From contig NZ_AEDD01000007.1 in assembly GCF_000179615.1 (NCBI RefSeq), positions 1 to 64,000 on the forward strand: DNA of 64,000 bases. The letters are read 5' to 3'. The notes beneath the pieces were generated by a model. The model saw only the letters and a program-made list of their open reading frames with translations, made no database searches and was not told where the DNA came from. The position numbers were made by a program, and so were the translations under genes. Source of the stretch: Paenibacillus curdlanolyticus YK9. GTDB lineage: Bacteria > Bacillota > Bacilli > Paenibacillales > Paenibacillaceae. Shown here one piece after another: positions 40,908-58,594 of the stretch. Every line of letters starts with the position of its first letter. Position 1 is the first letter of the stretch.

Positions 40908-40967
40908 ATTTATGATGCCTCTTCTCAGTCCTCGCAAATTGCACATGCATATGCAATTGCTTATCGC

Positions 40968-41867
40968 TTATTCAGAAACCGACGCGGGCTGCAATCGCCC
41001 TTCATTCGTACTCGACTGATCGCCGTTGCCATCGCCGTCGACCGTTAACTGGCGGAGCCATGCAGCGTCCGCCGCCAGCGTCTCGAACGGCTGCGCGCCG
41101 AACCATTCCAGCGAGCTGTAAAGCTCGCTATCGCCGATCGCGGCGATGATAGGCCGGAAGTCAAGCGCTCCGTCAGACAATGGAACCATGCCGGTTCGAT
41201 CGCTTCCCGACGCGTACACCTGAGCAGGCTCGAACACGTAGAGACGGTCAGCGGACGATACATTTTTGAGATGAAAATGATGCACCCATGGCTGCAGCTC
41301 CGCATACGCGGCAAGAACGTCATCGCCCGCCTCCCACAGATGCAGGAAATCGAGGTTGATGCCGAATGCGCCATGCCCGACCTCATCGATGAGCGTGCGA
41401 GCTGAAGCAAGATCATCCGACAACGTGCCAGGATGCGTCTCGGCGAGCAGCGTAACGCCATACTGCGCGCAAATATCGCTAAGCGCCCGAAGCCGCTTCA
41501 CGTACTCCCGCCGCATGTCGGGCGAAACCTTGCAGCTTGGCAGAGGGCCAGCGAACGTACGCAGGCGCGTCGTGCCATACCAGCGCGCGAGCGCCGCCAG
41601 CCGATGCGCTTTCGCCTGCGTTGCTGCGAAGCGCTCCTCCGTGGCGATGTCGAAGTAATCGCTAATCATCGCAATCCGCAGGCCATGCCCATGCATGAGC
41701 CGCAGCTGCTCCTTCGTCGCTTCGCGTTCCTCAGCCGTAGCCAGCCACTCGGCGTGTGCGCCCCACAGCTCAATGCCGTCGAATCGTTCGCGCAGCGCGA
41801 ATCGCACGATCGTTGCGAACGAGACGAGCGAGTGGCGGAACGAAATCGTGCACAAGCTTATTTTCAT
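40968..41867 (-). CDS. asbF: 3-dehydroshikimate dehydratase for 3,4-dihydroxybenzoate (AsbF)
   Basis: 299 residues; ATG behind GGAGG. It is a xylose-isomerase-like TIM barrel. Sequence such as MKISLCTISFRHSLVSF, FDGIELWGAHAEWL, LAETHPGTLSDDL, HHFHLKN and SLEWFGAQPF gives the metal Glu/His/Asp set. AsbF converts 3-dehydroshikimate to 3,4-dihydroxybenzoate (protocatechuate), the catechol of petrobactin. Last gene of the operon, 45 bases after asbE. The C-terminal ~20 residues are a polar tail not usual in the family. Confidence 0.92.
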   Translation of the reverse strand: MKISLCTISFRHSLVSFATIVRFALRERFDGIELWGAHAEWLATAEEREATKEQLRLMHGHGLRIAMISDYFDIATEERFAATQAKAHRLAALARWYGTTRLRTFAGPLPSCKVSPDMRREYVKRLRALSDICAQYGVTLLAETHPGTLSDDLASARTLIDEVGHGAFGINLDFLHLWEAGDDVLAAYAELQPWVHHFHLKNVSSADRLYVFEPAQVYASGSDRTGMVPLSDGALDFRPIIAAIGDSELYSSLEWFGAQPFETLAADAAWLRQLTVDGDGNGDQSSTNEGRLQPASVSE

Positions 41868-41912
41868 GCCAGCTGCCTCCTTCGGCTCTTCGACTCTTCG
41901 ATGCTCGGCTGC

Positions 41913-42914
41913 TTACGCCTGCCCGACAACGGTCCGAATCCGTTCGCCGGGCGCCAATTCCGCCTGCTTCCACATCCGGTACTGCCGGTCGATCTCGCTC
42001 TTAATCGAGAACTCGATTGCATCCGCCCGGTCCAAATGCCCGAGAATGTCCGGCAGCAGCGCCAGATCCTTCGTCATCGACAGCTTTACGCACATATATT
42101 GCACCGTGTGGAAAGCCTGCACGAGATCGCGAATCTCTTGGCACCACCGCTCGTAATTGTCTTCGGACAAGCCCAGCCGATCGCGGAAGAACATTAGCGC
42201 GTAATCGTAGCTGTATTTTCGGATAACGAGAATATTCAACTGCTGAACAGCAGACAGCAGCGTATCGAGCGTGCGCCCGCCGCGCCCCTCCGCCATGCTC
42301 ACGACGATGTCCCGCAGGCGCGAGACAAGCTCATTCTCATCCTTGCGCATCGTCGCTTCGTACAAGCCCGCAATCACATCAGGCGATGGATTTTCGATGC
42401 GTCCCGCATCGATCACATACCCGCCGCCATATTCATTGTGCAGGAACGCTTCCTTAATCCGTTCCTTAGGCAGATTGCCCTCCCACCGGAAATCCGGATC
42501 GAACATAAACCATTCGTCCTCATTGTCCGTCTTCGACAGCATCAGGAAATGCGGAAACGGCTTCGCTGCGAACTTGTTTTCACGCTCCGGCAGCATCGAC
42601 ATATCAATCTGGACGACGACATATTGGTCCTCCGTCTTGTTGTCCAGCAGGTTCAGCAGCAGCTGCCAGTTATGCTCCGCATTCCGGGTGAAATCGTACC
42701 ACTCTCGAATGCCGACCCCGAAGAACGCCCGATACCAATCGACAAAATGGTCATGGTCAGTGCGCGCCGAATAGTACGTGATGCGCCCTTCCTCCGTGAC
42801 ATCAAAATCAGAGTCCCACACGCCAAAATAAAACGGGCGATGATCGGCGCGTCCGCCCGCACGCCGCTTAATGATTTCGCAGAAGCAGCTGACGAGGCAA
42901 TGTACCTTAATCAT
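41913..42914 (-). CDS. asbE: AsbE-type 3,4-dihydroxybenzoyl transferase
   Basis: 333 residues, matching the petrobactin protein AsbE in length and in the N-terminal pattern KVHCLVSCFCEIIKRR followed by DHRPFYFGVWDSDF. AsbE moves 3,4-dihydroxybenzoate from holo-AsbD to a primary amine (spermidine or a citryl-spermidine in Bacillus). A Cys pair in the first 15 residues is present as in the family. The ATG overlaps the asbD stop by 4 bases. The amine accepted here is open because a diaminopropane pathway is encoded in the same operon. Confidence 0.9.
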   Translation of the reverse strand: MIKVHCLVSCFCEIIKRRAGGRADHRPFYFGVWDSDFDVTEEGRITYYSARTDHDHFVDWYRAFFGVGIREWYDFTRNAEHNWQLLLNLLDNKTEDQYVVVQIDMSMLPERENKFAAKPFPHFLMLSKTDNEDEWFMFDPDFRWEGNLPKERIKEAFLHNEYGGGYVIDAGRIENPSPDVIAGLYEATMRKDENELVSRLRDIVVSMAEGRGGRTLDTLLSAVQQLNILVIRKYSYDYALMFFRDRLGLSEDNYERWCQEIRDLVQAFHTVQYMCVKLSMTKDLALLPDILGHLDRADAIEFSIKSEIDRQYRMWKQAELAPGERIRTVVGQA

Positions 42915-43180
42915 GCGGCGCCTCCGTCCAACGGCTCCAGCCGCTCGATGAAATCAAGCAGCGAGCCTACTGTCGCAAATGCGCGCGCATCGACCTCTTG
43001 CTCCGGCACCCGCAGCGCGAGCTCACGCTCAAGCAATACGATCAACTGCAGCATCATAATGGAATCGATGCGCAGATCCTCATTCAGCCGGAGCGATTCC
43101 TCCAGCGCACCTGCCAGCTGCAGCTGCAGCTTGTCGCGCAGGAGCCTCTCTACTTGCTGTAACACCACGATCCGTTCCAT
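42911..43180 (-). CDS. asbD: Aryl carrier protein AsbD
   Basis: 89 residues. It has the carrier-protein site RIDSIMMLQLIVLLE with the Ser that takes the phosphopantetheine arm (about residue 39). Its small size, acidic helix pattern and place between the adenylating enzyme and the transferase fit AsbD. It carries 3,4-dihydroxybenzoate as a thioester. No phosphopantetheinyl transferase lies in the window. Confidence 0.92.
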   Translation of the reverse strand: MERIVVLQQVERLLRDKLQLQLAGALEESLRLNEDLRIDSIMMLQLIVLLERELALRVPEQEVDARAFATVGSLLDFIERLEPLDGGAA

Positions 43181-43185
43181 CTATG

Positions 43186-44508
43186 TTAAGCCTCGCTTTC
43201 TTGTTCCCTTGCCAGCATCGCACGGCTTACTTTGCCTGTTGCATTGCGTGGAATCGCGTCCACAATCCGTATTTCTGACGGCACTTTATAAGGAGGGAGC
43301 CCTTCCGCGCACCATGCCCGAATGTCGCTAGGCGTTAACCGATCCTGCTCGGCAGCATCAATCGTCACGAGCGCCAATGCCCGTTCCCCCATGATCGGAT
43401 GGCGGCCGCGGAAGACTACCGCTTCCTTCACGCCATTGCACTCGACCAGCCGCTCCTCCACTTCAAGTGGAAATACGTTTAATCCGCCTACGTTAATGAC
43501 ATCATCCAGCCGGGACATAAAATGCAGCCTTCCCTGCTCATCGGCATAGCCGAGATCGCCTGTTGCGATGCGGCGGCCAGTGCCGGCCACCTCTACGAAC
43601 AGCTCTTCCGCCGCAGCTTGGCCGCGGCCTGCCGTCACCGTCATATGCGACAGCGGCAACCCGAGGTCGCCGCAATGCTGCATCTGCGCAGCCAGCGAGA
43701 TGCATCCCGCTTCCGAGCAGCCATACTGTTGCATAACAGCAGCCGAAACGCTCGAAAGCCGCTCCAGCAGCGCGCCAGTCATCGGCGCGCCGGAGCTCAT
43801 CAGCCGATGGAATCGGAAGTCTTGCGGCGCCAGCGAGGAGATCACATGCAGCAGCAGCGGCACGCCATACACGAGATGCTCCGGCGTGTCGCGAATAATG
43901 CCCAGCGTCAGCTTCGGATTGGTCGCAGTTACGACGATTGGAGCCTTGCCGCGCGCGAATGCCGACAATACGCCGCTAATCAGCCCGTAAGCATGCGAGA
44001 CAGGCGCTAATACGATAGGCGAAGCATTCGCAGCTTCTCCCAACGATTCGTTATACGCCTTAACCTCGGCATCGACCTCTTCCCATGCCCGCTGGATGAG
44101 CTTTGGCGCACCCGTCGTGCCTGAGCTGAATTGAAGCAGCGACGGCTCAGCGGACACAGGCCCGCGCTCCCAGCCATTCGCCAGCTTGCCAGCAGCTTCG
44201 GACCAGTTGCCCGACACCTGCTCGGCAAGGCTGATGTAACCGTCCGCGCTTCCATAAAGCAGCACTTCACAGCCAGCATCGATCGCTCGCTGCCTCGCGG
44301 TCGCCTCCGGCGTCTCCGCATGCAGCAGCAGCGCAGATGCCCCCTGCTCCTTCACAATGAGCACCGCCCCGATCATGTCGATCGGATCTTGCAAGCAAAT
44401 CGCTAGGCGTTTGCCAGCGCACGCGCGAAGCGCGTTCGACTTGCGCAGCAGCGCCAAGCGGGCTTCGAACGAGCCTACTTGAACAGGCTCCCGGTTTATT
44501 GTAATCAT
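43186..44508 (-). CDS. asbC: 3,4-dihydroxybenzoate-AMP ligase AsbC
   Basis: 440 residues. It is an ANL-family adenylating enzyme: P-loop QFSSGTTGAPKLI, MQQYGCSEAG, GDLGYADEQG and the hinge SRLDDVINVGGLNVFP; the C-terminal catalytic Lys is in NATGKVSRAML. AsbC activates 3,4-dihydroxybenzoate and loads it on AsbD. The start overlaps the asbB stop by 4 bases. The choice of 3,4- rather than 2,3-dihydroxybenzoate rests on the neighbouring asbF. Confidence 0.92.
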   Translation of the reverse strand: MITINREPVQVGSFEARLALLRKSNALRACAGKRLAICLQDPIDMIGAVLIVKEQGASALLLHAETPEATARQRAIDAGCEVLLYGSADGYISLAEQVSGNWSEAAGKLANGWERGPVSAEPSLLQFSSGTTGAPKLIQRAWEEVDAEVKAYNESLGEAANASPIVLAPVSHAYGLISGVLSAFARGKAPIVVTATNPKLTLGIIRDTPEHLVYGVPLLLHVISSLAPQDFRFHRLMSSGAPMTGALLERLSSVSAAVMQQYGCSEAGCISLAAQMQHCGDLGLPLSHMTVTAGRGQAAAEELFVEVAGTGRRIATGDLGYADEQGRLHFMSRLDDVINVGGLNVFPLEVEERLVECNGVKEAVVFRGRHPIMGERALALVTIDAAEQDRLTPSDIRAWCAEGLPPYKVPSEIRIVDAIPRNATGKVSRAMLAREQESEA

Positions 44509-46418
44509 ATGGATAACTCCTTCTGTGCCGAGACGAGATGCAGCGGATTCGATACTTCGTGCATGAACGATCCGGCTGGAGCGCCTTCCGCCAGCTTAAC
44601 GAGCCGTTTCCTCGTCAGCTGCTCCAATTTTGTCGTCGGGCCGAATAGGTCGAGCTGGTCGAATCGCTCCCTCAGCTGAGGGTAACGCTGCAGATGCGTT
44701 TCAATCGCTTCTGCCGCCAGCGTCCAGAATCGGCGCTCTTCGAACCGATAGCGGTCGGCAAGCATCATCGCAAGCTCCGCCAAATTAATGCAATACAGCG
44801 CGCCGAGCAGCATATAGCGCAGCGGAGCGAGCGATTCGCATTCTCTTCCTTGGCGCGGATCATGGAATTTGCGATGCGCCTGCGTGAAATCCGGGCATGA
44901 TGCCGCGGCTTCCTTGCTTAGGAAGGGACGATAGTACATGGCATCCTCGTGAAAATCTTTAAGCGCTGCCCGTACCGGCCTGCCGTCGCGATGGACGAGC
45001 GCCATGTTCTGGGCATGCGATTCCAGCGCAATGCCATGCGCGCCGAGCAGATGCACGACAGGCATGACAGCAGCCTCGAACAGCTGCGACAGCCATTTTT
45101 CAATCCCGTACTGCTGCAGCCACGGCTCGATGAACGGCGTACCGTCGATATCGATCGCGCTCAATGCATGGAAGGGCACAGCCCGCTCGCCAGATTTCAG
45201 ATGAGGCTCTAGACTTTCCCGCCAAATACAGCTCAATGCGCCTTCATCGCCAACCTTCAATGCAGTGGCAGCCGCTCCCAGCCTGACTTCTACTCTGGCT
45301 TCCGAAGAACCGGCGCCCGCTTGCGCGGACGACGGATCGTAAGCAACCGCCGCGTACTCCGCCAACAGAATCGTGCCGGATTCCATGAGATATGCGTCGC
45401 TGCTTACTACCTGCTTGAGCCAAGCGGAAACGTATGGAGCAGCAACAGCATCATGCGGCTCGATATGCCGATACGACGACGTATTCAACAGGCTCATCGC
45501 CAGCTTGATTGACGACTTGGCTGGCGTGGTAGCATTGGACATCGTGCGAATGGACTGCTGCGGGCGATAAGCATCGTCCGATTGGCCCAACGGCACAATC
45601 TCCCCATCGCGAATCGCCGGGGACAGCTGGAATGCGAGGTTGCGCCATTGCCACGGATGGACCGGAAGCAGCGCCCACTGCACAGGCGTTTCCTCGACTG
45701 CAGCTGATTCCTTCGCTAAAGCCGACATAAACCGGTCATACTGCGCTTGACCCAGCTCCTGCTTCCAAAGCGATTCGAAAGAGCGTCCCTTCTCGATTGC
45801 CATCGCCGCATCGGATTGGCGAATCGCCAGCCATACCGGCCGAACCTCTGGCGCGAATTCCGGACCGAAAGCCGCTTGATCGGTCAGCGTAAAGCCAATT
45901 CGCGACTTGTAGCACGGGTGATACGGATGCCCGTCCATCGCCGCCGTCTCAAGCTCGCCAAAGCTGGATGCGGCAGTCAGGCTTAGCCCCGTCTCCCGCC
46001 GATACCGCTGCGCAATCGCGTCATTGGCCAGCGTTGCCTCCAGCTCCTTGACGAACGCATTCCGCTTGCTTTTGTCCGCTGCGTCCGCGCCAAGCACCTC
46101 TTGGAGAAACATTCGATAATCATCCGCCTCCCGGCGGCCTTCCTTCGCGATGCGGAGCGGCGGCGAATCGCTTAATCGAATCCGCCCGAACGACAATCGT
46201 TTGCCGCCCTTGACGTTGTATGTAATCGGTACGCCATCCTTGTCGCGGCCATGAATCAAAAACAGCGTTTCCTTGCCGAGCTGAACCGTTTCCGCAGAAA
46301 CAATCCGCTCGTACAGCATCGACTCGATCAGCTGCCGGAACACCCGCCGCCTTACTTGAACGTATACATCCGACTGAATCGCTTCCGCCAGCTGCATGTC
46401 GAACGGCTGCGCCTTCAT
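44505..46418 (-). CDS. asbB: NIS siderophore synthetase, IucA/IucC family, AsbB-like (second condensation)
   Basis: 637 residues from the ATG behind AGGGGGA; the longer frame to 46502 runs into the hydroxylase gene and has no ribosome site. IucA/IucC signatures are HPYHPCYKSRIGF, LPVHPWQW and SIRTMSNATTPAKSSIKLAMS (nucleotide-binding part), and LESHAQNMALV; a ferric-reductase-like Cys region is absent. The enzyme adenylates a citrate carboxylate and joins it to an amine. Its position directly before asbCDEF fits AsbB of petrobactin, but RhbF of rhizobactin would also sit after the hydroxylase, so the lineage needs a phylogeny. Confidence 0.88.
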   Translation of the reverse strand: MKAQPFDMQLAEAIQSDVYVQVRRRVFRQLIESMLYERIVSAETVQLGKETLFLIHGRDKDGVPITYNVKGGKRLSFGRIRLSDSPPLRIAKEGRREADDYRMFLQEVLGADAADKSKRNAFVKELEATLANDAIAQRYRRETGLSLTAASSFGELETAAMDGHPYHPCYKSRIGFTLTDQAAFGPEFAPEVRPVWLAIRQSDAAMAIEKGRSFESLWKQELGQAQYDRFMSALAKESAAVEETPVQWALLPVHPWQWRNLAFQLSPAIRDGEIVPLGQSDDAYRPQQSIRTMSNATTPAKSSIKLAMSLLNTSSYRHIEPHDAVAAPYVSAWLKQVVSSDAYLMESGTILLAEYAAVAYDPSSAQAGAGSSEARVEVRLGAAATALKVGDEGALSCIWRESLEPHLKSGERAVPFHALSAIDIDGTPFIEPWLQQYGIEKWLSQLFEAAVMPVVHLLGAHGIALESHAQNMALVHRDGRPVRAALKDFHEDAMYYRPFLSKEAAASCPDFTQAHRKFHDPRQGRECESLAPLRYMLLGALYCINLAELAMMLADRYRFEERRFWTLAAEAIETHLQRYPQLRERFDQLDLFGPTTKLEQLTRKRLVKLAEGAPAGSFMHEVSNPLHLVSAQKELSI

Positions 46419-46458
46419 CACCCGATTCCCCCTCGTCCCACCGTTTTTCGTTTGCGTC

Positions 46459-47775
46459 CTATTCGCCTTGCACGCCGAACTGCTGGAATACGTTGCGCTC
46501 ACGCGTCTTGTACACCTCGCGGCCAGCCAATCCGTTCACGATCAAGCTGCTGCGATGCGCGCCCAATCCAAGGTCCGGCGCACCGATGCCATGCGTGTGG
46601 AGCTCGCCATTTTGGACAAAAATCCGGCCTCCGGCATTCTCCGCCAGCTTTACGCGATAATCCTGATCGATCAGCAAACGCCCCTGCTCGTCATACTGGA
46701 TGAGCCCGCTAAGCGGTTCAATGCATGCGGGCAGCGGATGATCATAGCCGGTAGCCATAATCACAACATCCGCTTGCCGCTCGAATGCGGCTTGCTGCTC
46801 CACATGGCGGACGTTCAGTCGATAGCCATCTCCATCGCCCTGCGGCGCGATCTCGACGACATCCGCATGCGCAAGCAGCCGCACCGGCGGTTTTTGTCCG
46901 CCAACGCTAGCGTCGTACAACGCATCATAGATGTCGCCGATCGTCGTTGCGCTGATCCCCTTATACAGCAAATGCTGCTTGCTTCGCACCTTATCCTTGG
47001 TCGCCTGCGGCAGCCCATAGAAGTATTCGGTATAGTCCGGGGAGAAGTGCTCCAGCCCCAGCTTCGAATATTCCATCGGGAAGAAGCCGGACGAACGCGT
47101 CAGCCAATCCAACCGATAGCCATGCTCGCCCTGTTCGCCAAGCAGCTTCAGGAACACTTCAGCCGCGCTCTGGCCCGAGCCAATGACTGTAATGGATTTC
47201 GCTTCACGGCACCGCGGCAGCCGATCCATGAAGGAAGCCGAATGGAACACGTCCTCTGTAGGCAGCCCTCTAAACTGCGGCAGCACATTCGGCACGCTTC
47301 CGACGCCAAGCACGAGGTCACGCGCATAATGGACGGCCACTGCGCCGCTAGCTGCGTCACGCGTCTCAACGGCATACAGCGCACCATCAGGTCCTTCTTC
47401 CTGTCGAATCGCGACGACATCCGTACCGAATCGGCAGGACGACAGCTGCTCCGCCGCCCATCGGCAGTAATCGTTGTATTCGCGGCGAGGGATGTGAAAC
47501 TTCTCCAGGAAGTAGAAGTGATACAGCCGTCCCTGCTCATGCAAATAGTTCAAATAACTAAGCCGATGCGTCGGGTCCGCCATCGTCACCAAGTCAGCGA
47601 AGAACGGCACCTGCAGCGTCGTGCCTTCGATGAGCATGCCAGCATGCCATTCGAACGACGGCTTCCGGTCGAAGAAGACCGCGTCCACCTCCGGCGCCGC
47701 TTCGAGCAGTGCCGCCAAGCTAAGATTGAACGGGCCGATGCCGACGCCAATGACATCATGAATTCGGTTAGTCAA
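46459..47775 (-). CDS. rhbE: Diamine N-hydroxylase (IucD/RhbE family flavin monooxygenase)
   Basis: 438 residues. FAD motif GVGIGPFNLSLAALL, NADPH motif ITVIGSGQSAAEVFLKLL and the ATGY motif in VVIMATGYDHPLP are all present, as in lysine/ornithine N-hydroxylases. In the rhizobactin/schizokinen pathways this enzyme hydroxylates 1,3-diaminopropane. The ATG overlaps the acetyltransferase stop by 8 bases. The substrate is inferred from the diaminopropane genes in the same operon. Confidence 0.92.
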   Translation of the reverse strand: MTNRIHDVIGVGIGPFNLSLAALLEAAPEVDAVFFDRKPSFEWHAGMLIEGTTLQVPFFADLVTMADPTHRLSYLNYLHEQGRLYHFYFLEKFHIPRREYNDYCRWAAEQLSSCRFGTDVVAIRQEEGPDGALYAVETRDAASGAVAVHYARDLVLGVGSVPNVLPQFRGLPTEDVFHSASFMDRLPRCREAKSITVIGSGQSAAEVFLKLLGEQGEHGYRLDWLTRSSGFFPMEYSKLGLEHFSPDYTEYFYGLPQATKDKVRSKQHLLYKGISATTIGDIYDALYDASVGGQKPPVRLLAHADVVEIAPQGDGDGYRLNVRHVEQQAAFERQADVVIMATGYDHPLPACIEPLSGLIQYDEQGRLLIDQDYRVKLAENAGGRIFVQNGELHTHGIGAPDLGLGAHRSSLIVNGLAGREVYKTRERNVFQQFGVQGE

Positions 47776-48388
47776 GATATCCGCCCCCCATCAACCGTTC
47801 GCGGCTCGCGAACATCAAAGCGCCCGTCTTATCCGGCAGCTCGACATCCTGTGACCATTCAAAGCCGCAGCGGCTGAAAATGTGAATCATTTTATCGTTG
47901 CGCACATCCGGCTCTGCAACCAGCTTCTCGGTGCCGCCATGCTGCAGCAGCATGCGCATCATCGTCTGCAGCAGCGGGGCCGCATAGCCGCGTCCAAGAT
48001 AGGAAGGCTCGCCGATCAACAGATGAATGCCTTGGTCCTCCGGATGCGGCTCGTAGTAGCGGCCGATAATATCCCGATTCGCCCAATAGGCTTCAAAGTA
48101 GCTCATCGGCTCGCCATCGAGCAGTCCGATATAAAGCGTCTGATGATCATCCGCCAGAAACGCTGTCAAATGGTCCCGATAAGCCTGCTCCGAAATATTC
48201 AGCTTCCAGAAGGGAATAACATGCGGTTCATGCTGCCAGCGAAGCAGCCGATCAAAGTCCAGCTCCATGGACACGGGGCGGAATCCGATCATCCGCCCAA
48301 TGCCTGCATGGTAGCTCTCGTAGGTAGCGCCGCCCAATCCGTTACCGGACAGCTGCGGCCGATTGTGCTCCGTTTGCGTTGACGCCAT
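47768..48388 (-). CDS. rhbD: Hydroxylamine N-acetyltransferase (IucB/RhbD family GNAT)
   Basis: 206 residues with a strong AGGAGG site. It shows the siderophore acetyltransferase pattern: RPVSMELDFDRLLRWQHEPHVIPFWKLN, SYFEAYWANRDIIGRYYE, HLLIGEPSYLGRGYAAPL (acetyl-CoA loop) and EPDVRNDKMIHIFSRCGF. It would acetylate the hydroxylamine made by the hydroxylase and so finish the hydroxamate. The start lies 47 bases inside the rhbC frame, an unusually long overlap that the ribosome site supports. Confidence 0.93.
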   Translation of the reverse strand: MASTQTEHNRPQLSGNGLGGATYESYHAGIGRMIGFRPVSMELDFDRLLRWQHEPHVIPFWKLNISEQAYRDHLTAFLADDHQTLYIGLLDGEPMSYFEAYWANRDIIGRYYEPHPEDQGIHLLIGEPSYLGRGYAAPLLQTMMRMLLQHGGTEKLVAEPDVRNDKMIHIFSRCGFEWSQDVELPDKTGALMFASRERLMGGGYLD

Positions 48389-50294
48389 GCTCCGTCACCT
48401 CCTCCACAAGCGGATTCGGTACTTGCACATAGACCGATTGCGTATCGAGCGAGCCCACCAGCTCATCCATATCATGCAGACGGGTAAGTAGGTTAGCTTT
48501 GCACGGCAGCGTCCGTTCATTCAGCAGCGAATGCAGGAAAACAGACGGCTCGCGGTTAACCGGCAGGAATGCTGCCAGCGCGGCCCGCAGCTTGCCCAGC
48601 AGCACCCGCTCATCGATGAGGCCCGCTGTGCCAAACCCGTTAATAAGCCCGAACATATGATTGAAAATCAAATAATAGCGGAACCGCTCATCCGCAATCG
48701 CGTCCTCGCATACCGTTTCGCTCCGCTCCCCGATGCCTGGCAGCTGAGCATTCAGCAGCGATTCCGTCGATTTGCAGAAGTAATACCCTTGATTGTCCCG
48801 ATAGTGGAACTTCGCCGGATAACCGTCAGCCAGGCTGACTACGCTGTTCTGCTGATGCGCTTCCAGTGCAATGCCCCACTGCATATAGAGCGAGACCATC
48901 GGCTTCAGCGACAGCTCCAAATACCGGTCGAACCAGTCGGCGCTTACATCCGCCGTCGTGCGGCCTTCGCGCTGCGCCAGCTCCTCGATAATGACGCCAA
49001 GGCGCGACTTGTACCCTGGCAGCGCGTCCTGTACGAGCGATGCGACTGGCGTCGCCTCCTCAGCGCCGTCGCCGGCACGGAACAGGTTATCGCGCAGCAC
49101 CAGCTCGAAGCCGGTCTCGCGAATGCCTTCCGCCCCGCCCAATCGCAGCGTAATGAATGCAGGATCGGTCACGATGCCGAAGCCTTCATATTGCGCGCGA
49201 ACGTCGCCGATCGGCGTTTCCAGCAGGCGGCTTACCTCAACGCCGCGTTCCAGCTCTTTATACAAGTTAACGCGCAGCGAATTCGTTACTTTAACAGGCA
49301 CGGAGCATTTATACATGAATCGCGACTCCGGATGATAAACCGTTCGCAGCGAGGAAGTCGCCGCATAGGCGCGCCCTTGCGGTCCCAAATCGTACAGCAA
49401 TCCGGCACGGATCGCTTCTTGCACATAAGAGCGGTCCTTCAGCCAGTTCGCTTGCAGCGGATGGACCGGAAGGAGCGACCATTCTTCATCAGCCGCAGCA
49501 TACGCAGCCTTCCATTCAGCCGGTACGCTTGCATCCTCGCGCAGCTCCTGCTTCACGAGCTCCGTCGCGCTAGCCTCTACCGAGGAATCCTCCACGACGA
49601 TCGAACGATGCGCACGATAGTAGTGCAGCTGGAACTCGCCCTTGAGCTCTGGCGAATAATCCGCTTGGCGCTCTTCCGGCACGCCTTGCCGGCTCTTCGG
49701 CGTAGGATGGAGCAGGTGGCCGAACACTAGCGCCTGCTCCTGCTTGATAAAGCTCGAGTCGAACGCATAGAGCGCATCCGCATCGACGGCACGCGCTTCA
49801 ACGAACTGCGCAACGTTCGCCGTGCTCTGAATGATGCGAAGCATCAGCTCCTCCGAGCCTGCGCCAGGAGCTGAACCCTCGCGCACAGCTGTCCCCGACG
49901 ACCGCCCTGCTTGCTTCGCCGCCTGTTCGGCAGCAAGCGTCAACTCTTTGGTCAGCAACGCCGCAACCGTCAAGTAATCAGCCTCTACAACCCGATCTGC
50001 GGCCCCGCCGTACTGGATCACCATCGGGAACCGGAACAGATGCCGCCCCGTAGCCGAACGATAGTTGACGCCAATTAGCAGAACAGCGCCTTGCTCTGGC
50101 AGGGAGCAGACAACCAGCCCATCCGGCCCTTGAATCGCTTCCGCCGCTTTACGCCCGCCGGAGGTCAGCCCGCTCGGCGCTTCCCCGGCCTTCAGCCATT
50201 CGCCAGCGCCCGTCTCGCGCAAATAACAGTTCATCAGCCCTTGCAAGGCCGCTTCATTTGCAATAGCTCTTGCTTTGCTTGTCGTCATTACCAT
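48342..50294 (-). CDS. rhbC: NIS siderophore synthetase, IucA/IucC family, RhbC/IucA-like (first condensation)
   Basis: 650 residues; GGGAGG stands 11 bases before the ATG, and a second ATG follows two codons later. Signatures are LLPVHPLQANWL, SSLRTVYHPESRFMYKCSVPVKVT and ALEAHQQNSVV, typical of citrate-adenylating type A enzymes. It should couple the first diamine arm to a citrate carboxylate. It follows the decarboxylase gene by 52 bases and overlaps rhbD. Confidence 0.9.
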   Translation of the reverse strand: MVMTTSKARAIANEAALQGLMNCYLRETGAGEWLKAGEAPSGLTSGGRKAAEAIQGPDGLVVCSLPEQGAVLLIGVNYRSATGRHLFRFPMVIQYGGAADRVVEADYLTVAALLTKELTLAAEQAAKQAGRSSGTAVREGSAPGAGSEELMLRIIQSTANVAQFVEARAVDADALYAFDSSFIKQEQALVFGHLLHPTPKSRQGVPEERQADYSPELKGEFQLHYYRAHRSIVVEDSSVEASATELVKQELREDASVPAEWKAAYAAADEEWSLLPVHPLQANWLKDRSYVQEAIRAGLLYDLGPQGRAYAATSSLRTVYHPESRFMYKCSVPVKVTNSLRVNLYKELERGVEVSRLLETPIGDVRAQYEGFGIVTDPAFITLRLGGAEGIRETGFELVLRDNLFRAGDGAEEATPVASLVQDALPGYKSRLGVIIEELAQREGRTTADVSADWFDRYLELSLKPMVSLYMQWGIALEAHQQNSVVSLADGYPAKFHYRDNQGYYFCKSTESLLNAQLPGIGERSETVCEDAIADERFRYYLIFNHMFGLINGFGTAGLIDERVLLGKLRAALAAFLPVNREPSVFLHSLLNERTLPCKANLLTRLHDMDELVGSLDTQSVYVQVPNPLVEEVTEHGVNANGAQSAAAVR

Positions 50295-50346
50295 GAAAGT
50301 CCGTTCCTCCCAATCGATTCAAAAAAACGATCCGCGCTGCCGGAAA

Positions 50347-51915
50347 TTATCCCGCTTGTTGCTCCGTCTCCAGCGCGAGCCCCGCCTCTACAATTTTTCG
50401 TATAATAATTGCCGTATGCGCTGACTCCGTCAGCGGATTTAGCAGCGTCATCTTCAAGCATTGCCGTCCCCATACTCTCGTGCGGGCCAGTACCGCCCAA
50501 CCGTCGGCAAGCAGCCGGTCCCGAATGCGCGCATTCAGCTCATCCGCCCAATGCAGCGAATTGTCATCATTCAGCTCCCGGCTAACCGGCATGTAACGGA
50601 ACACAACCGTTCCCAGTTCCGGCTCGGCAAGCAGCGCGAGCCTCGGTTCCGCTTTGATCAGCACAGCCGTATCTTGGGCCAATCGAACCGTATGGTCCAC
50701 CATCTCGCCGAACTTGCGGCCGCCGACATGCTGAAGCGACAGATACAGCTTCAGCGCATCGAACCGGCGCGTCGTTTGGATCGACTTCACGACCAGATTC
50801 GGCACGCCTGCCTCCTCGTCCGATTCGGGATTCAAATAATCGGCGCTCATGCGGATCGATTGGAACGTTTCCTTGTCTCGGACAAGGAAAGCGCCGCAGC
50901 TAATCGGCTGATAGAACCCCTTATGAAAATCGACGGTTACAGAATCCGCTTCCTCGATTCCCCGAAGCCTTGCCCGCTGCGATTCGCTCATCGCCAGAGC
51001 TCCGCCGTATGCTGCATCAACGTGGAACCACATGCCGTTCTGCCGCGCTATTGCAGCCAGCTCTTCCAGCGGATCGATTGCGCCGAAGTCCGTCGTGCCC
51101 GCCGTCGCGACAAGCGCGAACGGGAGCAAGCCGCTCCCCTTCAGTTCCTTCAGCTTCAGCAGCAAATCATCCTTGCGCATCCGATGGCGAGAATCAGTCT
51201 TGATCGTTACGACCGCCTGCTCCCCTAAACCGAGCAGCGCCGCCGATTGCTTCACGGTAAAATGCGCTTCCTCCGAGCAAAGAATGCGAAGGCGGCAGCT
51301 GGCTGCCGGCAATCCTCGCTGCTGAACATTCCAATTCCAGCGGACCGCAGCATAGTGGTTGCGCGCCAGCAGCAATCCCATCAGGTTCGACTGCGTGCCG
51401 CCGCTCGTGAAGACGCCATCGCCAGTTTCCGCCAGCCCGTACAGTCCGCAGAGCCATGCCATCACATGCTCTTCCAGCATCGTCCCTGCCATGCTCTGGT
51501 CCCATGAATCCATCGATTGGTTCGAAGCCGCAATCCACGCTTCTGCTGCCAGAGAGGCCATAAGCGGCGGACAGTGCAGATGCGCGACGCATGCGGGATG
51601 CGTCACCACGGCCGAATGCCGCAGCATATCCGCACCGAGTCGGTTCAGCAGCTCGGACATCGTTTCGGACGGCTCCTCGGGACATACCGGCTGCCGTTCT
51701 AACGCAGCCAGCAGCGACTCTGGAGCCGCCCCGCTGTATGGCTTAGCCGAAGCGGCGAACTCGCGAATCAGCACCTCGGTCGCCGTATTGATCATACTCC
51801 GATAGGCATCCTGGCTCGCGAGCTCCGGTCCGAGGAACAAGTCCCCGAACAACTCGCCTGCCGACGCTCTCCGCTGCTCCACAGTTTGCTCCTGAACGTC
51901 CGCCCCAACCGTCAT
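50347..51915 (-). CDS. rhbB: L-2,4-diaminobutyrate decarboxylase
   Basis: 522 residues from the ATG that overlaps the aminotransferase stop (ATGA); the longer frame to 51945 has no ribosome site. It is a group II PLP decarboxylase: HLHCPPLMASLAAEAWIAA, FTSGGTQSNLMGLLLAR, WFHVDAAYGGALAMSE (PLP Asp) and the PLP Lys in SVTVDFHKGFYQP. It converts 2,4-diaminobutyrate to 1,3-diaminopropane, the amine backbone of rhizobactin 1021 and schizokinen arms. Confidence 0.93.
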   Translation of the reverse strand: MTVGADVQEQTVEQRRASAGELFGDLFLGPELASQDAYRSMINTATEVLIREFAASAKPYSGAAPESLLAALERQPVCPEEPSETMSELLNRLGADMLRHSAVVTHPACVAHLHCPPLMASLAAEAWIAASNQSMDSWDQSMAGTMLEEHVMAWLCGLYGLAETGDGVFTSGGTQSNLMGLLLARNHYAAVRWNWNVQQRGLPAASCRLRILCSEEAHFTVKQSAALLGLGEQAVVTIKTDSRHRMRKDDLLLKLKELKGSGLLPFALVATAGTTDFGAIDPLEELAAIARQNGMWFHVDAAYGGALAMSESQRARLRGIEEADSVTVDFHKGFYQPISCGAFLVRDKETFQSIRMSADYLNPESDEEAGVPNLVVKSIQTTRRFDALKLYLSLQHVGGRKFGEMVDHTVRLAQDTAVLIKAEPRLALLAEPELGTVVFRYMPVSRELNDDNSLHWADELNARIRDRLLADGWAVLARTRVWGRQCLKMTLLNPLTESAHTAIIIRKIVEAGLALETEQQAG

Positions 51916-53276
51916 GCCCGCACCTCTTCCCGCACGCCGCTGCACGCAAGCTCTGCCGCACGCACTGCATCATGGAACCTCGAAGCAACCTCATCCGCCT
52001 GCTCCGGCGTTATGATAAGCGGCGGCAGGAACCTGACGACGCTGCCATGCCTTCCGCCAAGCTCCAAAATCAGTCCCCGCGCCAGGCAGGCTTGCTGAAT
52101 CGCACGCGCCAGCCCCGGACGCGCGGGGTAAGCGCCTAAGCGATCAGGCTCTGCATCGGATTGGACGATCTCGACGCCAATCATCAGTCCCTTGCCGCGC
52201 ACTTCGCCGATGCAGGAAACATCTGCTTGGATGCGGCGCAGCGCCTCCTGAAGACGCTCCCCTATAGCGGCTGCATGCGTCTCAAGCCGGTTATCGCGAA
52301 TAAACTTCAGCGTAGCTGCACCGGCAGCCATCGCCATTTGATTGCCGCGGAACGTTCCCGCATGCGCGCCAGGCTGCCACACGTCCAGCGACTCGTCGTA
52401 AACGACGACTGCCAGCGGCAAGCTTCCCCCGATCGCCTTCGATAGCACGATGACATCCGGTACGATATCGGCATGCTCGAACGCGAACATTTTGCCCGTA
52501 CGACCGATTCCCGCTTGAACCTCGTCCATAATGAGCGGGATGCCGCGCGCCGCTGTCATGGCACGCATCTCCTTCAGCCAACCGTCCGGAGAAGGAATGA
52601 CGCCGCCCTCGCCTTGTACGGCTTCCATGATCATCCCCGCGGGCTGCACGATGCCGCTCTCTGGATCAGCCAGCATCCGCTCCGCATATCGCGCAGCTAC
52701 CTGCCAGCCTTGCTCGCCTCCAAGCTCGAACGGGCAGCGGTAGCTGTACGGGTAAGGCAGAAAATGAACATCGCTCATCAGCGGGCCAACGGCCCCTTTG
52801 GGACCAAGATTGCCTGTCAGCCCGAGTGCGCCGTGCGTCATCCCATGATAACCGCCGTGGAACGACAGCATCGTTCGTCTGCCGGTTGCCGTCTTCACCA
52901 GCTTGAGCGCCGCCTCTACGGCGTCAGCGCCCGAAGGGCCGCAAAACTGTACTTTAGCTCGCGCCGCGAATGCTGGAGGCAGCGAAGCGAACAATTCGTC
53001 GACGAAATGCTCTTTCACCGGTGTCGTAAGATCCAGCGTGTGCAGCGGGAGTCCCGTATCCAGCACGCCTCGAATCGCTTCGATGACGACAGGGTGATTG
53101 TGTCCCAGCGCCAGCGTGCCAGCACCTGCGAGACAATCAAAGTACCAGTTGCCATCTGCATCCTTCACTTTCATCCCTGCTGCTTCAGTCAGTGCGACGG
53201 GCAGCTTTCGCGGATAGGAGCGTGCGTTGGACTCCCTCCGTTGTTGACTTTCCAAGTAAAAGCCGTTTCCCGGCAT
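51912..53276 (-). CDS. rhbA: Diaminobutyrate--2-oxoglutarate aminotransferase
   Basis: 454 residues from the ATG at 53276; a TTG at 53288 touches the AAAGGAG site, so the ATG is preferred, although its spacing is long (about 12 bases). It is a class III PLP aminotransferase: CLAGAGTLALGHNHP, FCGPSGADAVEAALKL, FHGGYHGMTHGALGLTG, IMDEVQAGIGRTG and the PLP Lys in VIVLSKAIGG. It makes 2,4-diaminobutyrate from aspartate semialdehyde and glutamate. First gene of the ten-gene siderophore operon, preceded by two Fur boxes. Confidence 0.93.
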   Translation of the reverse strand: MPGNGFYLESQQRRESNARSYPRKLPVALTEAAGMKVKDADGNWYFDCLAGAGTLALGHNHPVVIEAIRGVLDTGLPLHTLDLTTPVKEHFVDELFASLPPAFAARAKVQFCGPSGADAVEAALKLVKTATGRRTMLSFHGGYHGMTHGALGLTGNLGPKGAVGPLMSDVHFLPYPYSYRCPFELGGEQGWQVAARYAERMLADPESGIVQPAGMIMEAVQGEGGVIPSPDGWLKEMRAMTAARGIPLIMDEVQAGIGRTGKMFAFEHADIVPDVIVLSKAIGGSLPLAVVVYDESLDVWQPGAHAGTFRGNQMAMAAGAATLKFIRDNRLETHAAAIGERLQEALRRIQADVSCIGEVRGKGLMIGVEIVQSDAEPDRLGAYPARPGLARAIQQACLARGLILELGGRHGSVVRFLPPLIITPEQADEVASRFHDAVRAAELACSGVREEVRA

Positions 53277-53348
53277 TCCACCATTCAACTCCTTTTCTCC
53301 CTTTACTCTAATGACCGCAAGAGGATTATTCTCATTATGCTCGTTAAG

Positions 53349-53363
53349 TGATAATGATTATCA
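53349..53363. promoter_or_regulatory. Fur box 1 of the biosynthetic operon
   Basis: TGATAAT-G-ATTATCA is a perfect 7-1-7 Fur box, 73 bases upstream of the rhbA start. A degenerate third site (AGAGGATTATTCTCA) is at 53320-53334. Confidence 0.9.
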
Positions 53364-53390
53364 GTATCGTTTATTCTTCGTTATTGTAAA

Positions 53391-53405
53391 TGATTATTAT
53401 TATCA
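53391..53405. promoter_or_regulatory. Fur box 2 of the biosynthetic operon
   Basis: TGATTAT-T-ATTATCA matches the 7-1-7 Fur consensus in 13 of the 14 arm bases. A candidate minus-strand -35, TTTACA (53390-53385), lies directly next to it. No gene lies in 53277-53568. Confidence 0.85.
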
Positions 53406-53568: not shown

Positions 53569-54459
53569 CTAAGCCGAATTGGACTCCACGGTCGGCGCCG
53601 CTTCTTCGCGCCCCCATACATGATGCGCTACACGCCCGCGTCCGCGAGGCACGCACAACGGCGTGCCAAAGAACGGATCAGGCAGCAGCTCGCAGTCCAT
53701 GCCGAACACATCCTTCACCAGCGCTTGGCTAACGATCGTTTCAGGCGCCCCTTGCGCATAGATCCCTCTGTCCCGGACGGCAATCAAATGATGCGCATAC
53801 CGGCATGCCAAGTTCAGGTCATGAAGCACCATCACGATCGTGCTGCCCTTGTTTTCGTTCAGCTCAAACAGCAGATCCAGCACATCAACCTGATGCGCCA
53901 TATCCAGATACGTCGTTGGCTCGTCGAGCAGTATCGTGTTCGTTCCCTGCGCCAGCGTCATCGCAATCCACGCACGCTGCCGCTGGCCGCCCGATAACGA
54001 GTCGACCTGCCGATCCGCCAGCGCCTCCAGCTTCGTCGCAGCCAGCGCCTCGCCGACCATCCGCTCATCCTCGCGCGACCATTGATTCAGCCAGCTCTGA
54101 TGCGGATATCGCCCTTGCTTGACCAGTTGATACACCGTCAAGCCTTCCGGCGCAGTCGGCCCTTGCGGAAGAATAGCGAGACGCTTCGCCACATCCTTCG
54201 TCGATTGCTTGGCGATATCGTGCCCATCCAGCAGTACTGCGCCAGACAACGGCTTCAGCAGCCGCGCCATCGAACGCAGCAGCGTCGATTTGCCGCATCC
54301 GTTCGGACCGATCAGCACGCTGATTCGGGATTGCGGAATGGCCAAATCGAGGCTGTCGATGATACGGTCTCCCCCGTAAGAGAGCGACAGCTGATTCGTT
54401 TCGAGTTGACCTGCACCTGCGCCTATTACGCTCGGCCCTTTACCCACGCTCATGCTCAT
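53569..54459 (-). CDS. Ferric-siderophore ABC transporter ATPase (FecE/FhuC family)
   Basis: 296 residues. Walker [13 protein letters not shown]-loop AILPQGP, signature [19 protein letters not shown], Walker [16 protein letters not shown] and H-loop VLHDLNLA are typical of the FecE group. Last gene of the uptake operon, 18 bases after the second permease. The C-terminal ~25 residues are a polar tail. Confidence 0.95.
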
Positions 54460-54477: not shown

Positions 54478-55530
54478 TCATCGCGCATTGCGCGTTCGAA
54501 ATAGCAAATAAATAAAGAACGGCGCGCCTATCGCTGCCGTAAATACGCCTGCTGGCACGTCGTGCGGCAAAAACAACGTGCGCCCGACCAGGTCGGCCCC
54601 CATGAGAATGCAGGCGCCAATCAAGGCCGAAGCCGGAATAAGTCCGCCTGCGGAAGCGCCTACAAGACGCCTTGCCATATGCGGCGCGATCAAGCCGACA
54701 AAGCCGATCGTCCCGACCATCGATACGGCAGAGCCCGCAAGGCCGACCGCAAGCAGCAGCAGCCACAGCCTTTGCCGTTGAACGGCGCTGCCTGCCCCGG
54801 CCGCTATATCATCGCCTAGCTGTTGAATGTTAAGCGCGCGCGCGCCTGCCAGCCATGCAAGAATAAGCAGCGGAACCATCCACGGCAGCAGCGTTCGGAC
54901 ATTGTCCCAGTTCGCCCCGTAGACCGTGCCTGTCAGCCAAATATAAGCCGAGGACGCCGAGTAGGTTGAAGGCGCCATAATGAGCAGCATCGAAACAAGC
55001 GCCGACAATACCGATGCGATGCCAATGCCGACAAGCACAAGGCGAACGGTAGAGACGCCTTTTTTCCAAGCAAGCGCATAGACCACGAGCGCTGCGATTA
55101 GCGCACCGGCCATTGCAGTGATAGGAAGCAAGCGAATATCATATAGGCCTGGCAGCTGCGTAATGAAGAAGACTGCCCCTACGGAAGCGCCGCCTGTTAC
55201 GCCTACCACATCGGGCGCTGCTAGCGGGTTCCGCACGACGCATTGCAAAATCGTGCCGGCGGCAGCCAAGCCTGCGCCCGCCAGCATGCTGATGAGGATG
55301 CGCGGCAGCCGCAGCGTTTGCACCACAAGCAGCTGCTCCTCCGTTCCGGTTCCGCGTATCGCGCGCAGCACGTCCATTGGCATGATCCGATAATCGCCGA
55401 GGCCAGCGCTTACTAGCGCGAGCACGACAACAGCAGCCGTCAGCGATGCAATGATGCTAGCTGTTCGGCGATGGATTTGAACGGATACAGGAAGCGCAGG
55501 AATACGAATCGTCAGGTATGATTTATTCAT
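54478..55530 (-). CDS. FecCD family ferric-siderophore permease, second subunit
   Basis: 350 residues with about ten hydrophobic segments. Family motifs are LRLPRILISMLAGAGLAAAG, NPLAAPDVVGVTGGASVGAV and IGFVGLIAPHMARRLVG. It overlaps the first permease by 4 bases. The pair should form the membrane channel for the ferri-siderophore. Confidence 0.95.
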   Translation of the reverse strand: MNKSYLTIRIPALPVSVQIHRRTASIIASLTAAVVVLALVSAGLGDYRIMPMDVLRAIRGTGTEEQLLVVQTLRLPRILISMLAGAGLAAAGTILQCVVRNPLAAPDVVGVTGGASVGAVFFITQLPGLYDIRLLPITAMAGALIAALVVYALAWKKGVSTVRLVLVGIGIASVLSALVSMLLIMAPSTYSASSAYIWLTGTVYGANWDNVRTLLPWMVPLLILAWLAGARALNIQQLGDDIAAGAGSAVQRQRLWLLLLAVGLAGSAVSMVGTIGFVGLIAPHMARRLVGASAGGLIPASALIGACILMGADLVGRTLFLPHDVPAGVFTAAIGAPFFIYLLFRTRNAR

Positions 55531-56558
55531 CGTTTGCGCTCCCTCCTCGCAATAGCGATGAAGAACGGCACGCCGATAATCGCTGTCATGATGCCTACCG
55601 GCAGCTCTTGCGGCATAATGATGAATCTTGCAATCAGGTCTGCTAACAGCAGCAGAATGGCGCCCAGCACGCCGCTGAAGGGAATGACCCAGCGATAGTC
55701 GATGCCGCCTAGATAACGGGACAGATGCGGAATGACGATGCCGACGAAGCCAATCGGTCCGGCAACGGCAACCGAGCTGCCTGCAAGGAGCACGATGACG
55801 ATCCCGCCTACGATTTTGACCGCAGCCGTTCGCTGCCCCAGACCCGTTGCCGCATCCTCGCCCATGATCAGTACGTTAATCGGCCGTCCGAGGAATAGCG
55901 CTGCAACCCAGCTAATCGCCAAATAAGGCAGTACAGCCGTCAAAGCCGAGAGATCCTTGCCAGAAACAGAGCCCGTCAGCCAATACAGCACATCGTTCAG
56001 CCCATTCTCATTCATAACTAGCAGCCCTTGCGTCACAGATGCAAACAAGGCTGTCATGGCGGCGCCTGCCAATACGATGCGCAGCGGCGATAAGCCATCC
56101 CTGCCCAGCGACCCTAGCAGATAGACCGTTATCGCCCCAAAGGCCGCGCCGCCAAAGGCGATCCATATTAGCGCATTCATCCCGCCGATTCCGAGTACCG
56201 TGATGGCGAAGACGACGAACGCCGCAGCGCCCGCATTAATGCCAAGCACCGTCGGCGAAGCGAGGGGATTGCCCGTAATCGCCTGCATCAGTGCCCCTGC
56301 AATGGCAAGGCTCGCGCCAATCGCGGCAGAAATAAGCACACGCGGAATCCGAGTCGTCCTCACGATAATTTGCTCGTTAGAGCTGTCGTCATATTGCGTA
56401 ATTGCCCCGATTGCGTCGTGCACGCCAATTCGCGTTGCCCCCAGCGTCGTGCTGGCACCGAGGCAAATAAGCAGCAGGACGAAGCCGGCTAGCAGCACTA
56501 CTGCTCTCGCGCGAGCGCTGGTCAAGCCTTGTGCGATCACAAATGTCCTTCCTCTCAT
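55527..56558 (-). CDS. FecCD family ferric-siderophore permease, first subunit
   Basis: 343 residues with about ten hydrophobic segments; motifs TRIPRVLISAAIGASLAIAG, GNPLASPTVLGINAGAA and GPIGFVGIVIPHLSRYLGG. It lies 86 bases after the binding-protein gene and is coupled to the second permease. Confidence 0.95.
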   Translation of the reverse strand: MRGRTFVIAQGLTSARARAVVLLAGFVLLLICLGASTTLGATRIGVHDAIGAITQYDDSSNEQIIVRTTRIPRVLISAAIGASLAIAGALMQAITGNPLASPTVLGINAGAAAFVVFAITVLGIGGMNALIWIAFGGAAFGAITVYLLGSLGRDGLSPLRIVLAGAAMTALFASVTQGLLVMNENGLNDVLYWLTGSVSGKDLSALTAVLPYLAISWVAALFLGRPINVLIMGEDAATGLGQRTAAVKIVGGIVIVLLAGSSVAVAGPIGFVGIVIPHLSRYLGGIDYRWVIPFSGVLGAILLLLADLIARFIIMPQELPVGIMTAIIGVPFFIAIARRERKR

Positions 56559-57937: not shown

Positions 57938-58043
57938 GATAAGTTCAATCACCTTTCCATTATGAGAATTACGATGCCTTTATGCCTGTTCTTGGTGCAA
58001 GACGTGTACGACGGTACAACATATCACACGATGCAGCCTAACG

Positions 58044-58532: not shown

Positions 58533-58547
58533 TGATAATGATAATCA
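58533..58547. promoter_or_regulatory. Fur box 3 (uptake operon, proximal)
   Basis: TGATAAT-G-ATAATCA, one mismatch to the perfect 7-1-7 box, 25 bases ahead of the lipoprotein start. Confidence 0.85.
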
Positions 58548-58565
58548 TTCACTTGCCCGCTTACT

Positions 58566-58594
58566 ATGATAATGATTATCATTATAGTTGTCAA
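58566..58594 (-). promoter_or_regulatory. Promoter of the siderophore uptake operon
   Basis: On the minus strand TTGACA (58594-58589) and TATCAT (58571-58566) are separated by 17 bases; the spacer is occupied by Fur box 4. Confidence 0.8.
58567..58581. promoter_or_regulatory. Fur box 4 (uptake operon, in the promoter)
   Basis: TGATAAT-G-ATTATCA, a perfect 7-1-7 box, lying between -35 and -10 of the uptake promoter. Confidence 0.92.

What the first reader, a model, noticed from the sequence alone, without database searches (positions are those of the whole stretch)
40968..53276. Hybrid siderophore operon: rhbABCDE joined to asbBCDEF
Seen: ten tightly packed minus-strand genes, mostly overlapping or a few tens of bases apart, whose order is the rhizobactin 1021 order (aminotransferase, decarboxylase, NIS synthetase, acetyltransferase, hydroxylase) followed by the petrobactin order (NIS synthetase, AMP ligase, carrier protein, AsbE transferase, dehydroshikimate dehydratase). 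Known: the first set makes N-acetyl-N-hydroxy-diaminopropane arms on citrate; the second makes 3,4-dihydroxybenzoyl arms. Inference: with only two NIS synthetases, the likely product is a citrate siderophore with one hydroxamate arm and one 3,4-catecholate arm, which I do not know as a described compound. The alternative is a locus that makes both schizokinen-like and catecholate products.
Basis: partly seen in the sequence, partly recalled or inferred. Interest (0 to 1): 0.93.

Follow-up and report, generated by a model that had tools for sequence, protein, structure and literature searches.

The report
Hybrid hydroxamate-catechol citrate siderophore operon
A Paenibacillus-like bacterium carries one set of ten genes, apparently controlled by iron, that joins two known recipes for iron-grabbing molecules, and the same set occurs in at least 21 related genomes, which suggests a mixed and probably new molecule with one arm of each kind on a citrate core.

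Summary
Ten open minus-strand genes (40968-53288; spacings -47 to +52 bases) read rhbABCDE-asbBCDEF behind a Fur-box-like site. I found the order in 22 genomes: the window, 17 named, 4 unnamed; all Paenibacillus or its order, plus one Brevibacillus MAG. Ten genes were seen in 18, nine in 4. In 17 of 18 hybrid genomes searched, the operon's two IucA/IucC synthetases are the only ones; one genome has three more. NIS-1 is of RhbC ancestry, NIS-2 is an AsbB. The likeliest product is a citrate siderophore with one N-acetyl-N-hydroxy-diaminopropane arm and one 3,4-dihydroxybenzoyl-polyamine arm (p about 0.62). Rivals: a promiscuous mixture with symmetric products, or petrobactin made by AsbB alone. 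There is no mass evidence, and the polyamine is unsettled. Ten full-text searches of an open-licence library listed no paper on the operon or compound. Second result: with paralogue rooting, petrobactin AsbA nests inside the RhbC radiation, and two genomes have rhbABCDE with an AsbB-like synthetase but no asbCDEF beside it, so hydroxamate and petrobactin operons look continuous. Direction is not resolved.

The parts
51912..53288 (-). RhbA-like diaminobutyrate--2-oxoglutarate aminotransferase (TTG at 53288, ATG at 53276)
   Evidence: 61% to S. meliloti and 67% to PCC 7002
50347..51945 (-). RhbB-like diaminobutyrate decarboxylase
   Evidence: NF052646 443 bits, under its cut-off of 900
48342..50294 (-). 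NIS-1, IucA-side IucA/IucC synthetase in the rhbC position
   Evidence: trees
47768..48388 (-). RhbD-like GNAT acetyltransferase (Acetyltransf_8)
46459..47775 (-). RhbE-like N-monooxygenase
44505..46502 (-). NIS-2, AsbB-like IucA/IucC synthetase (start codon not settled)
   Evidence: AsbB 3to3, 502 bits; trees
43186..44508 (-). AsbC-like AMP ligase
42911..43180 (-). AsbD-like aryl carrier protein, DSI serine motif read by eye
   Evidence: NF005798, 100.2 bits, cut-off 100
41913..42914 (-). AsbE-like protein (DUF6005), DHB transferase by homology
   Evidence: PF19468, 469 bits
40968..41867 (-). AsbF-like 3-dehydroshikimate dehydratase
   Evidence: 3dx5, E 9e-81
53350..53404 (-). Fur-box-like sites before rhbA (exact 13-mer at 53350-53362, one-mismatch site at 53392-53404)
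   Evidence: a site with at most 2 mismatches lies within 300 bases before rhbA in 17 of 17 other hybrid genomes whose upstream DNA was held (no shuffle control for those)
53569..54459 (-). ABC transporter ATPase of the neighbouring uptake genes
54478..55530 (-). FecCD permease
55527..56558 (-). FecCD permease
56645..57952 (-). Siderophore-binding protein with Cu_amine_oxidN1 domain; nearest solved relatives SirA (223 bits) and YfiY (220 bits), YclQ far behind (41 bits)
58534..58586 (-). Cluster of Fur-box-like sites about 580 bases before the binding-protein gene; that they serve the uptake genes is inference

Best explanation
The operon makes one mixed-ligand citrate siderophore. RhbA and RhbB make 1,3-diaminopropane; RhbE and RhbD turn it into N-acetyl-N-hydroxy-diaminopropane; NIS-1 (rhbC position) joins this arm to citrate. 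AsbF makes 3,4-dihydroxybenzoate; AsbC loads it on AsbD; AsbE moves it to a polyamine (spermidine, or the diaminopropane the operon makes itself); AsbB joins this second arm to the citryl monoamide. Hydroxamate, catechol and the citrate hydroxy-acid then give six oxygen ligands. Transcription is probably Fur-controlled, and the neighbouring YfiY/SirA-like ABC importer probably takes the ferric complex back. Shown: genes, order, conservation, relatives, Fur-like sites. Inferred: every reaction, the substrates of the two NIS enzymes, the product.
For: Same operon in 22 genomes. No IucA_IucC genes beyond this pair in 17 of 18 hybrid genomes searched. dN/dS 0.035-0.116 in all ten genes against one near relative, L077, so neither half looks decaying. 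Both halves diverge in step: Mantel r 0.94 over 15 loci. Hybrids are one clade for rhbABDE (19 rows, 100/99) and for asbCEF (15 rows, 100/96). All 22 hybrid NIS-1 rows have the schizokinen-type residue at both columns that separate 10 schizokinen-type from 27 petrobactin-type enzymes; hybrid NIS-2 is petrobactin-type at 22 of 27 columns that separate petrobactin-type from RhbF and RhbF-type at none. Genes lie at most 52 bases apart. AdoMet decarboxylase is present in 18 of 18 hybrid genomes and two spermidine-synthase-family matches in the window's genome, so spermidine should be available.
Against: No mass or expression data. An AsbB-like NIS sits beside rhbABCDE in two genomes (G236, G287), and G236 has no AsbE match anywhere, so this enzyme lineage can probably also add a hydroxamate arm; at the 27 RhbF/petrobactin columns these two are petrobactin-like at 24, so those columns do not tell catechol use. 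AsbB is reported redundant for AsbA (PMC5596346 passage). Co-located pathways have given separate products: dhb plus an aerobactin-like NIS cluster in Kushneria gave enterobactin and aerobactin (PMC13251462 passages). Only 2 columns separate the NIS-1 groups, and none was mapped to an active site. A two-mismatch Fur-like site inside rhbE (46656) and chance-level promoter matches leave a second, internal promoter possible.
Confidence: 0.62

Rival explanations
1. A promiscuous locus: the same two NIS enzymes make a family of products (schizokinen, mixed, and bis-catechol) whose ratio follows arm supply.
For: AsbB redundant for AsbA (PMC5596346 passage); AsbB-like NIS with rhbABCDE and no AsbE in G236; combinatorial polyamine siderophores are known in Serratia (PMC7962358 passages).
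Against: Both halves are kept in all 22 hybrids and co-diverge; a locus with separable products should lose one half now and then. The two G236/G287-type loci could be such losses, but the rhbABDE tree puts them beside the hybrids, not inside.
Confidence: 0.25
2. AsbB alone makes petrobactin (both condensations) from the asb half, while the rhb half with NIS-1 makes a hydroxamate-citrate product or intermediate: two products, one operon.
For: Reported redundancy of AsbB; co-located clusters with separate products (PMC13251462 passages).
Against: A full schizokinen needs a second condensation, and 17 of 18 hybrid genomes have no third NIS gene. The uptake protein next door is YfiY/SirA-like rather than YclQ-like.
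Confidence: 0.08
3. The operon is fused but part of it is silent or non-functional.
For: No expression data.
Against: All ten frames open, dN/dS at most 0.116 in every gene against L077, conserved in 22 genomes.
Confidence: 0.03

Closest known systems
Schizokinen / synechobactin / rhizobactin 1021 clusters (rhbABCDEF)
   Same: RhbA-B-C-D-E order and the enzymes for the N-acetyl-N-hydroxy-diaminopropane arm; in 15 of 21 other hybrids the 1.1-1.6 kb gap between RhbE and NIS-2 holds an ORF of 405-471 aa, the one tested is MFS_1, and that slot holds an MFS gene in PCC 7002 and a relative of it in G251
   Different: NIS-2 is AsbB-like, not RhbF-like; asbCDEF follows it; the window has no such MFS gene in the operon and its genome only a 23% relative, E 7e-7
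Petrobactin cluster asbABCDEF
   Same: AsbB-C-D-E-F order; AsbB and AsbF relatives of known structure
   Different: rhbAB and rhbDE flank the first synthetase; NIS-1 has the RhbC-type residues at the two separating columns; an importer with binding protein lies next door, whereas petrobactin clusters were reported to lack a binding-protein gene (PMC13293324 passage)
Rhodopetrobactin / methylolanthanin / roseobactin loci
   Same: asb-type aryl arms on citrate, with an added acetyltransferase in the methylolanthanin and rhodopetrobactin loci (PMC11317620 passages)
   Different: no diaminobutyrate pathway or N-hydroxylase is named in the passages I saw
SCH2 loci (G236, G287; this work)
   Same: rhbABCDE plus AsbB-like NIS
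   Different: no asbCDEF next to it; G236 has no AsbE match at all, G287 has a separate asb locus

Membership tests
Petrobactin-type (asb) biosynthesis | AsbB, AsbC, AsbD, AsbE, AsbF homologues in one operon | tested here: met
Petrobactin-type (asb) biosynthesis | AsbA-clade first synthetase | tested here: inconclusive
   NIS-1 sits beside, not inside, the petrobactin rows; deep order unresolved
Petrobactin-type (asb) biosynthesis | bis-catecholate spermidine product | not testable with these tools
   needs mass spectrometry
Schizokinen/rhizobactin-type (rhb) biosynthesis | RhbA, RhbB, first synthetase, RhbD, RhbE in that order | tested here: met
Schizokinen/rhizobactin-type (rhb) biosynthesis | RhbF-type second synthetase | tested here: not met
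   NIS-2 falls with AsbB, apart from RhbF rows; 0 of 27 separating columns RhbF-like in the hybrids
NRPS-independent siderophore (NIS) biosynthesis | synthetases with IucA_IucC and FhuF domains | tested here: met
   both proteins over the Pfam cut-offs
Fur regulon | Fur-box-like site before the first gene | tested here: met
   protein binding itself not tested

The most novel reading that the evidence does not exclude
This conserved operon makes the first citrate siderophore that pairs an N-acetyl-hydroxamate arm with a 3,4-catecholate arm, and it preserves the gene order through which petrobactin biosynthesis grew out of a schizokinen operon: an AsbB-like NIS took the rhbF place, asbCDEF was added, and the petrobactin line then lost rhbABDE while its RhbC became AsbA.
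Probability: 0.3. Interest if true: 0.82.

Novelty: new variant of a known kind. Interest (0 to 1): 0.66.

Why it matters
It would be a new siderophore chemotype predicted from sequence, with three kinds of iron ligand on one citrate, held by 9 of 295 genomes drawn from the family and 15 of 392 drawn from the order, in eight genera and two families. It gives natural pairs of NIS synthetases of opposite arm ancestry, which makes the question of NIS amine selectivity directly testable. It also links two siderophore families that are usually described apart.

Tried and rejected
Viral contigs: the AsbE scan found nothing. Plasmid collection by DNA for asbB-asbD: 15 records, short weak matches only, those listed lying at IucA/IucC genes or unannotated. 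Rooting NIS-2 with NIS-1 paralogues put the root among long petrobactin branches; I treat it as an artefact and draw no direction from NIS-2. With Bacillaceae-type rows at the root, the asbCEF hybrids lie among Paenibacillaceae petrobactin rows and one Caldalkalibacillus row, which speaks for the opposite direction (petrobactin genes captured by a rhb operon); I leave direction open. NIS-1 hybrids are one side of a branch in the first quick tree (support 71) but not in the combined tree, and in only 15% of bootstrap trees of the careful one, so single origin rests on rhbABDE, asbCEF and NIS-2. Searches are quick trees without bootstrap.

Rows dropped: one search took 28 of the 63 other named loci as petrobactin-type rows (27 gave a usable NIS-1); one search left out 11 loci on both sides (99 of 121 rows kept); one search left out nine rows (51 of 60 kept), among them S. 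meliloti and the long branches L152 and L155; one search used 19 and one search used 15 of the 22 hybrids; one search thinned 22 to 15. Some rhb rows lack RhbA where the 10 kb flank ended first. The Fur-site search gave none for five such records because their rhbA runs off the record; longer stretches of four of these genomes show sites, the fifth (L082) was not held. Among comparison loci without asbCDEF, L205 and L206 have a site, L177 a two-mismatch one, L175 and L176 none. A consensus promoter and terminator scan of 40800-53600 found 7 and 9 sites against 5.5 and 10.5 in shuffles, so it decides nothing; two minus-strand promoter-like matches overlap the Fur-like sites. The uptake protein was typed by sequence only. 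No structure prediction was run.
Full report
OBSERVATION. The window (contig C33 of a 5.4 Mb genome, 99.99% complete, 0.05% contaminated) holds ten minus-strand genes between 53288 and 40968. Neighbours overlap or lie at most 52 bases apart. The nearest relative found is Paenibacillus sp. MMS18-CY102 (L077), 87-95% identical over the ten proteins, so the organism is Paenibacillus-like by inference; the genome itself is unnamed.

REGULATION AND SURROUNDINGS. A scan for GATAATNATTATC with up to two mismatches finds ten sites in the window against 1.83 expected; none of 100 shuffles reached ten. One exact site lies at 53350-53362, just before rhbA. In 17 of 17 other hybrid genomes whose upstream DNA I held, such a site lies within 300 bases before rhbA. 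One two-mismatch site lies inside rhbE (46656), so an internal promoter is not excluded; a consensus promoter scan was at chance level. Upstream lie an ABC ATPase, two FecCD permeases and a binding protein, with a cluster of sites at 58534-58586. The binding protein is nearest to SirA (223 bits) and YfiY (220 bits), far from YclQ (41 bits). YfiY is listed as the schizokinen receptor and YclQ as a petrobactin receptor in PMC13293324 (passages); a reference title there ties SirA to staphyloferrin B.

HOW COMMON. AsbE (PF19468) matches in 50 of 295 family genomes. I fetched 40 stretches around these matches: 8 carry the rhbABCDE-asbBCDEF order. A scan of genome contigs confirmed 211 relatives of AsbE and kept the best 80; 17 of the 80 are hybrids, 16 labelled Paenibacillus and one a Brevibacillus MAG. 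The RhbB model finds 14 of 295 family genomes at E 1e-60, 17 of 392 order genomes at E 1e-100 and 4 of 299 phylum genomes at E 1e-60. Of the 14, nine are hybrids, two are SCH2 (G236, G287), one is rhbABCDE-rhbF (G251), and two carry only RhbA- or RhbB-related genes in the stretch fetched (G246, G293); of the 17, fifteen are hybrids and two rhbABCDE-rhbF. Matching contig lengths between the lists gives 22 distinct hybrids: the window, 17 named, and G094, G683, G630 and G613. All ten genes were seen in 18 (in L082 RhbA, and in G683 AsbF, are cut by the end of the stretch). In G641/L099 no AsbD was detected, and in L079, L083 and L084 RhbA was not seen, its place lying at or beyond the end of the fetched flank.

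SYNTHETASES. NIS-2 matches AsbB 3to3 at 502 bits, NIS-1 matches IucA best at 175 bits. With at least 80% agreement in each group, 2 NIS-1 columns separate schizokinen-type (10) from petrobactin-type (27), and all 22 hybrid rows have the schizokinen-type residue at both; 27 NIS-2 columns separate RhbF-type (9) from petrobactin-type (28), and the hybrids are petrobactin-like at 22, mixed at 5 and RhbF-like at none; the two SCH2 rows are petrobactin-like at 24. Ten NIS-2 columns separate SCH2 from petrobactin-type; the hybrids are petrobactin-like at 4, SCH2-like at 1, mixed at 5. The labels schizokinen-type and petrobactin-type rest on gene content, not on tested products.

EVOLUTION. The rhbABDE genes of 19 hybrids form one clade (100/99) with SCH2 beside it (96/99). 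The asbCEF genes of 15 hybrids form one clade (100/96). NIS-2 of 18 hybrids forms one clade at SH-aLRT 96, and of 16 hybrids at 91 in the combined tree. Rooted with the NIS-2 paralogues, petrobactin AsbA, hybrid NIS-1 and SCH2 NIS-1 nest inside the RhbC radiation (98 for 41 rows, 85 for 40). So AsbA seems to descend from an RhbC-like enzyme. In SCH2 genomes the AsbB-like NIS precedes rhbABCDE and a relative of the MFS gene follows rhbE. In 15 of 21 other hybrids an ORF of 405-471 aa fills the gap between rhbE and asbB; the one tested is MFS_1. Two histories fit: a schizokinen operon that gained asbCDEF and later gave rise to petrobactin operons by loss of rhbABDE, or capture of petrobactin genes by a rhb operon. 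leans to the second, gene order and to the first.

CO-RETENTION. dN/dS against L077, a single pair, is 0.035-0.116 in all ten genes (RhbA over 340 codons because L077 ends in it). Pairwise distances of rhbBDE and asbCDEF correlate at r 0.94 over 15 thinned hybrids (permutation p 0.0001). Shared ancestry alone gives such a correlation; it shows joint descent, not joint function.

MECHANISM. A pathway for the hydroxamate arm was proposed for Haloferax: from aspartate through diaminobutyrate and diaminopropane, N-hydroxylation and acetylation, then two condensations on citrate to schizokinen (PMC7407949, passages). [quoted passage not shown] AsbF also PMC11317620). That AsbC charges AsbD and AsbE transfers to the polyamine is recalled. 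Type A synthetases use citrate and type C use citryl monoamides (PMC10700112 passages). Putting these together, NIS-1 adds the hydroxamate arm and AsbB the catechol arm. The polyamine may be spermidine (AdoMet decarboxylase in 18 of 18 hybrids; two spermidine-synthase-family matches in the window's genome) or the operon's own diaminopropane, which catecholate pathways can use (serratiochelins, PMC7962358 passages).

CAUTIONS. Kushneria has dhb genes beside an aerobactin-like NIS cluster, was predicted to make a mixed product, and made two (PMC13251462, passages). Here the sharing of the only two synthetases makes two full products harder but not impossible.

LITERATURE. Ten full-text searches of the open-licence library listed, by title and start of abstract, no paper on this operon or on a citrate siderophore with one hydroxamate and one 3,4-catecholate arm. 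I saw passages of nine papers and read none whole. Most subscription papers and bioRxiv are not in the library.

VERDICT. The finding is real, conserved and, by its upstream sites, probably iron-controlled. A mixed product is the best reading at about 0.62. It is a new variant of NIS siderophore biosynthesis, not a new kind of system.

Noticed in passing
This hints at a glycosylated product in that branch.
   Followed up: partly
G287 (L047 and L177): One genome carries a petrobactin-type asb locus and, about 213 kb away on the same contig, a rhbABCDE locus led by an AsbB-like NIS.
   Followed up: partly
G096 C4:35519-42024: Three further IucA/IucC genes outside the hybrid operon.
   Followed up: no
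G641 C59 (L201): A second RhbA-RhbB pair (70% and 54%) without other genes matched by these queries, perhaps a diaminopropane supply.
   Followed up: no
L058-L072: AsbC, AsbD and a distant AsbE (21-36%), in three with AsbF, without a match to the window's two NIS genes in the fetched stretch: 15 of the 40 stretches. AsbE relatives seem to serve outside petrobactin clusters too.
   Followed up: no
window 39560-40789: A DUF2935 domain fused to an Fe/Mn superoxide dismutase, next to the siderophore operon on the other strand; a second SOD-like ORF lies at 63073-63687 (named by eye).
   Followed up: no
window 56645-57952: The siderophore-binding protein carries an N-terminal Cu_amine_oxidN1 domain before the Peripla_BP_2 domain; by eye its leader has no lipoprotein cysteine.
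   Followed up: no
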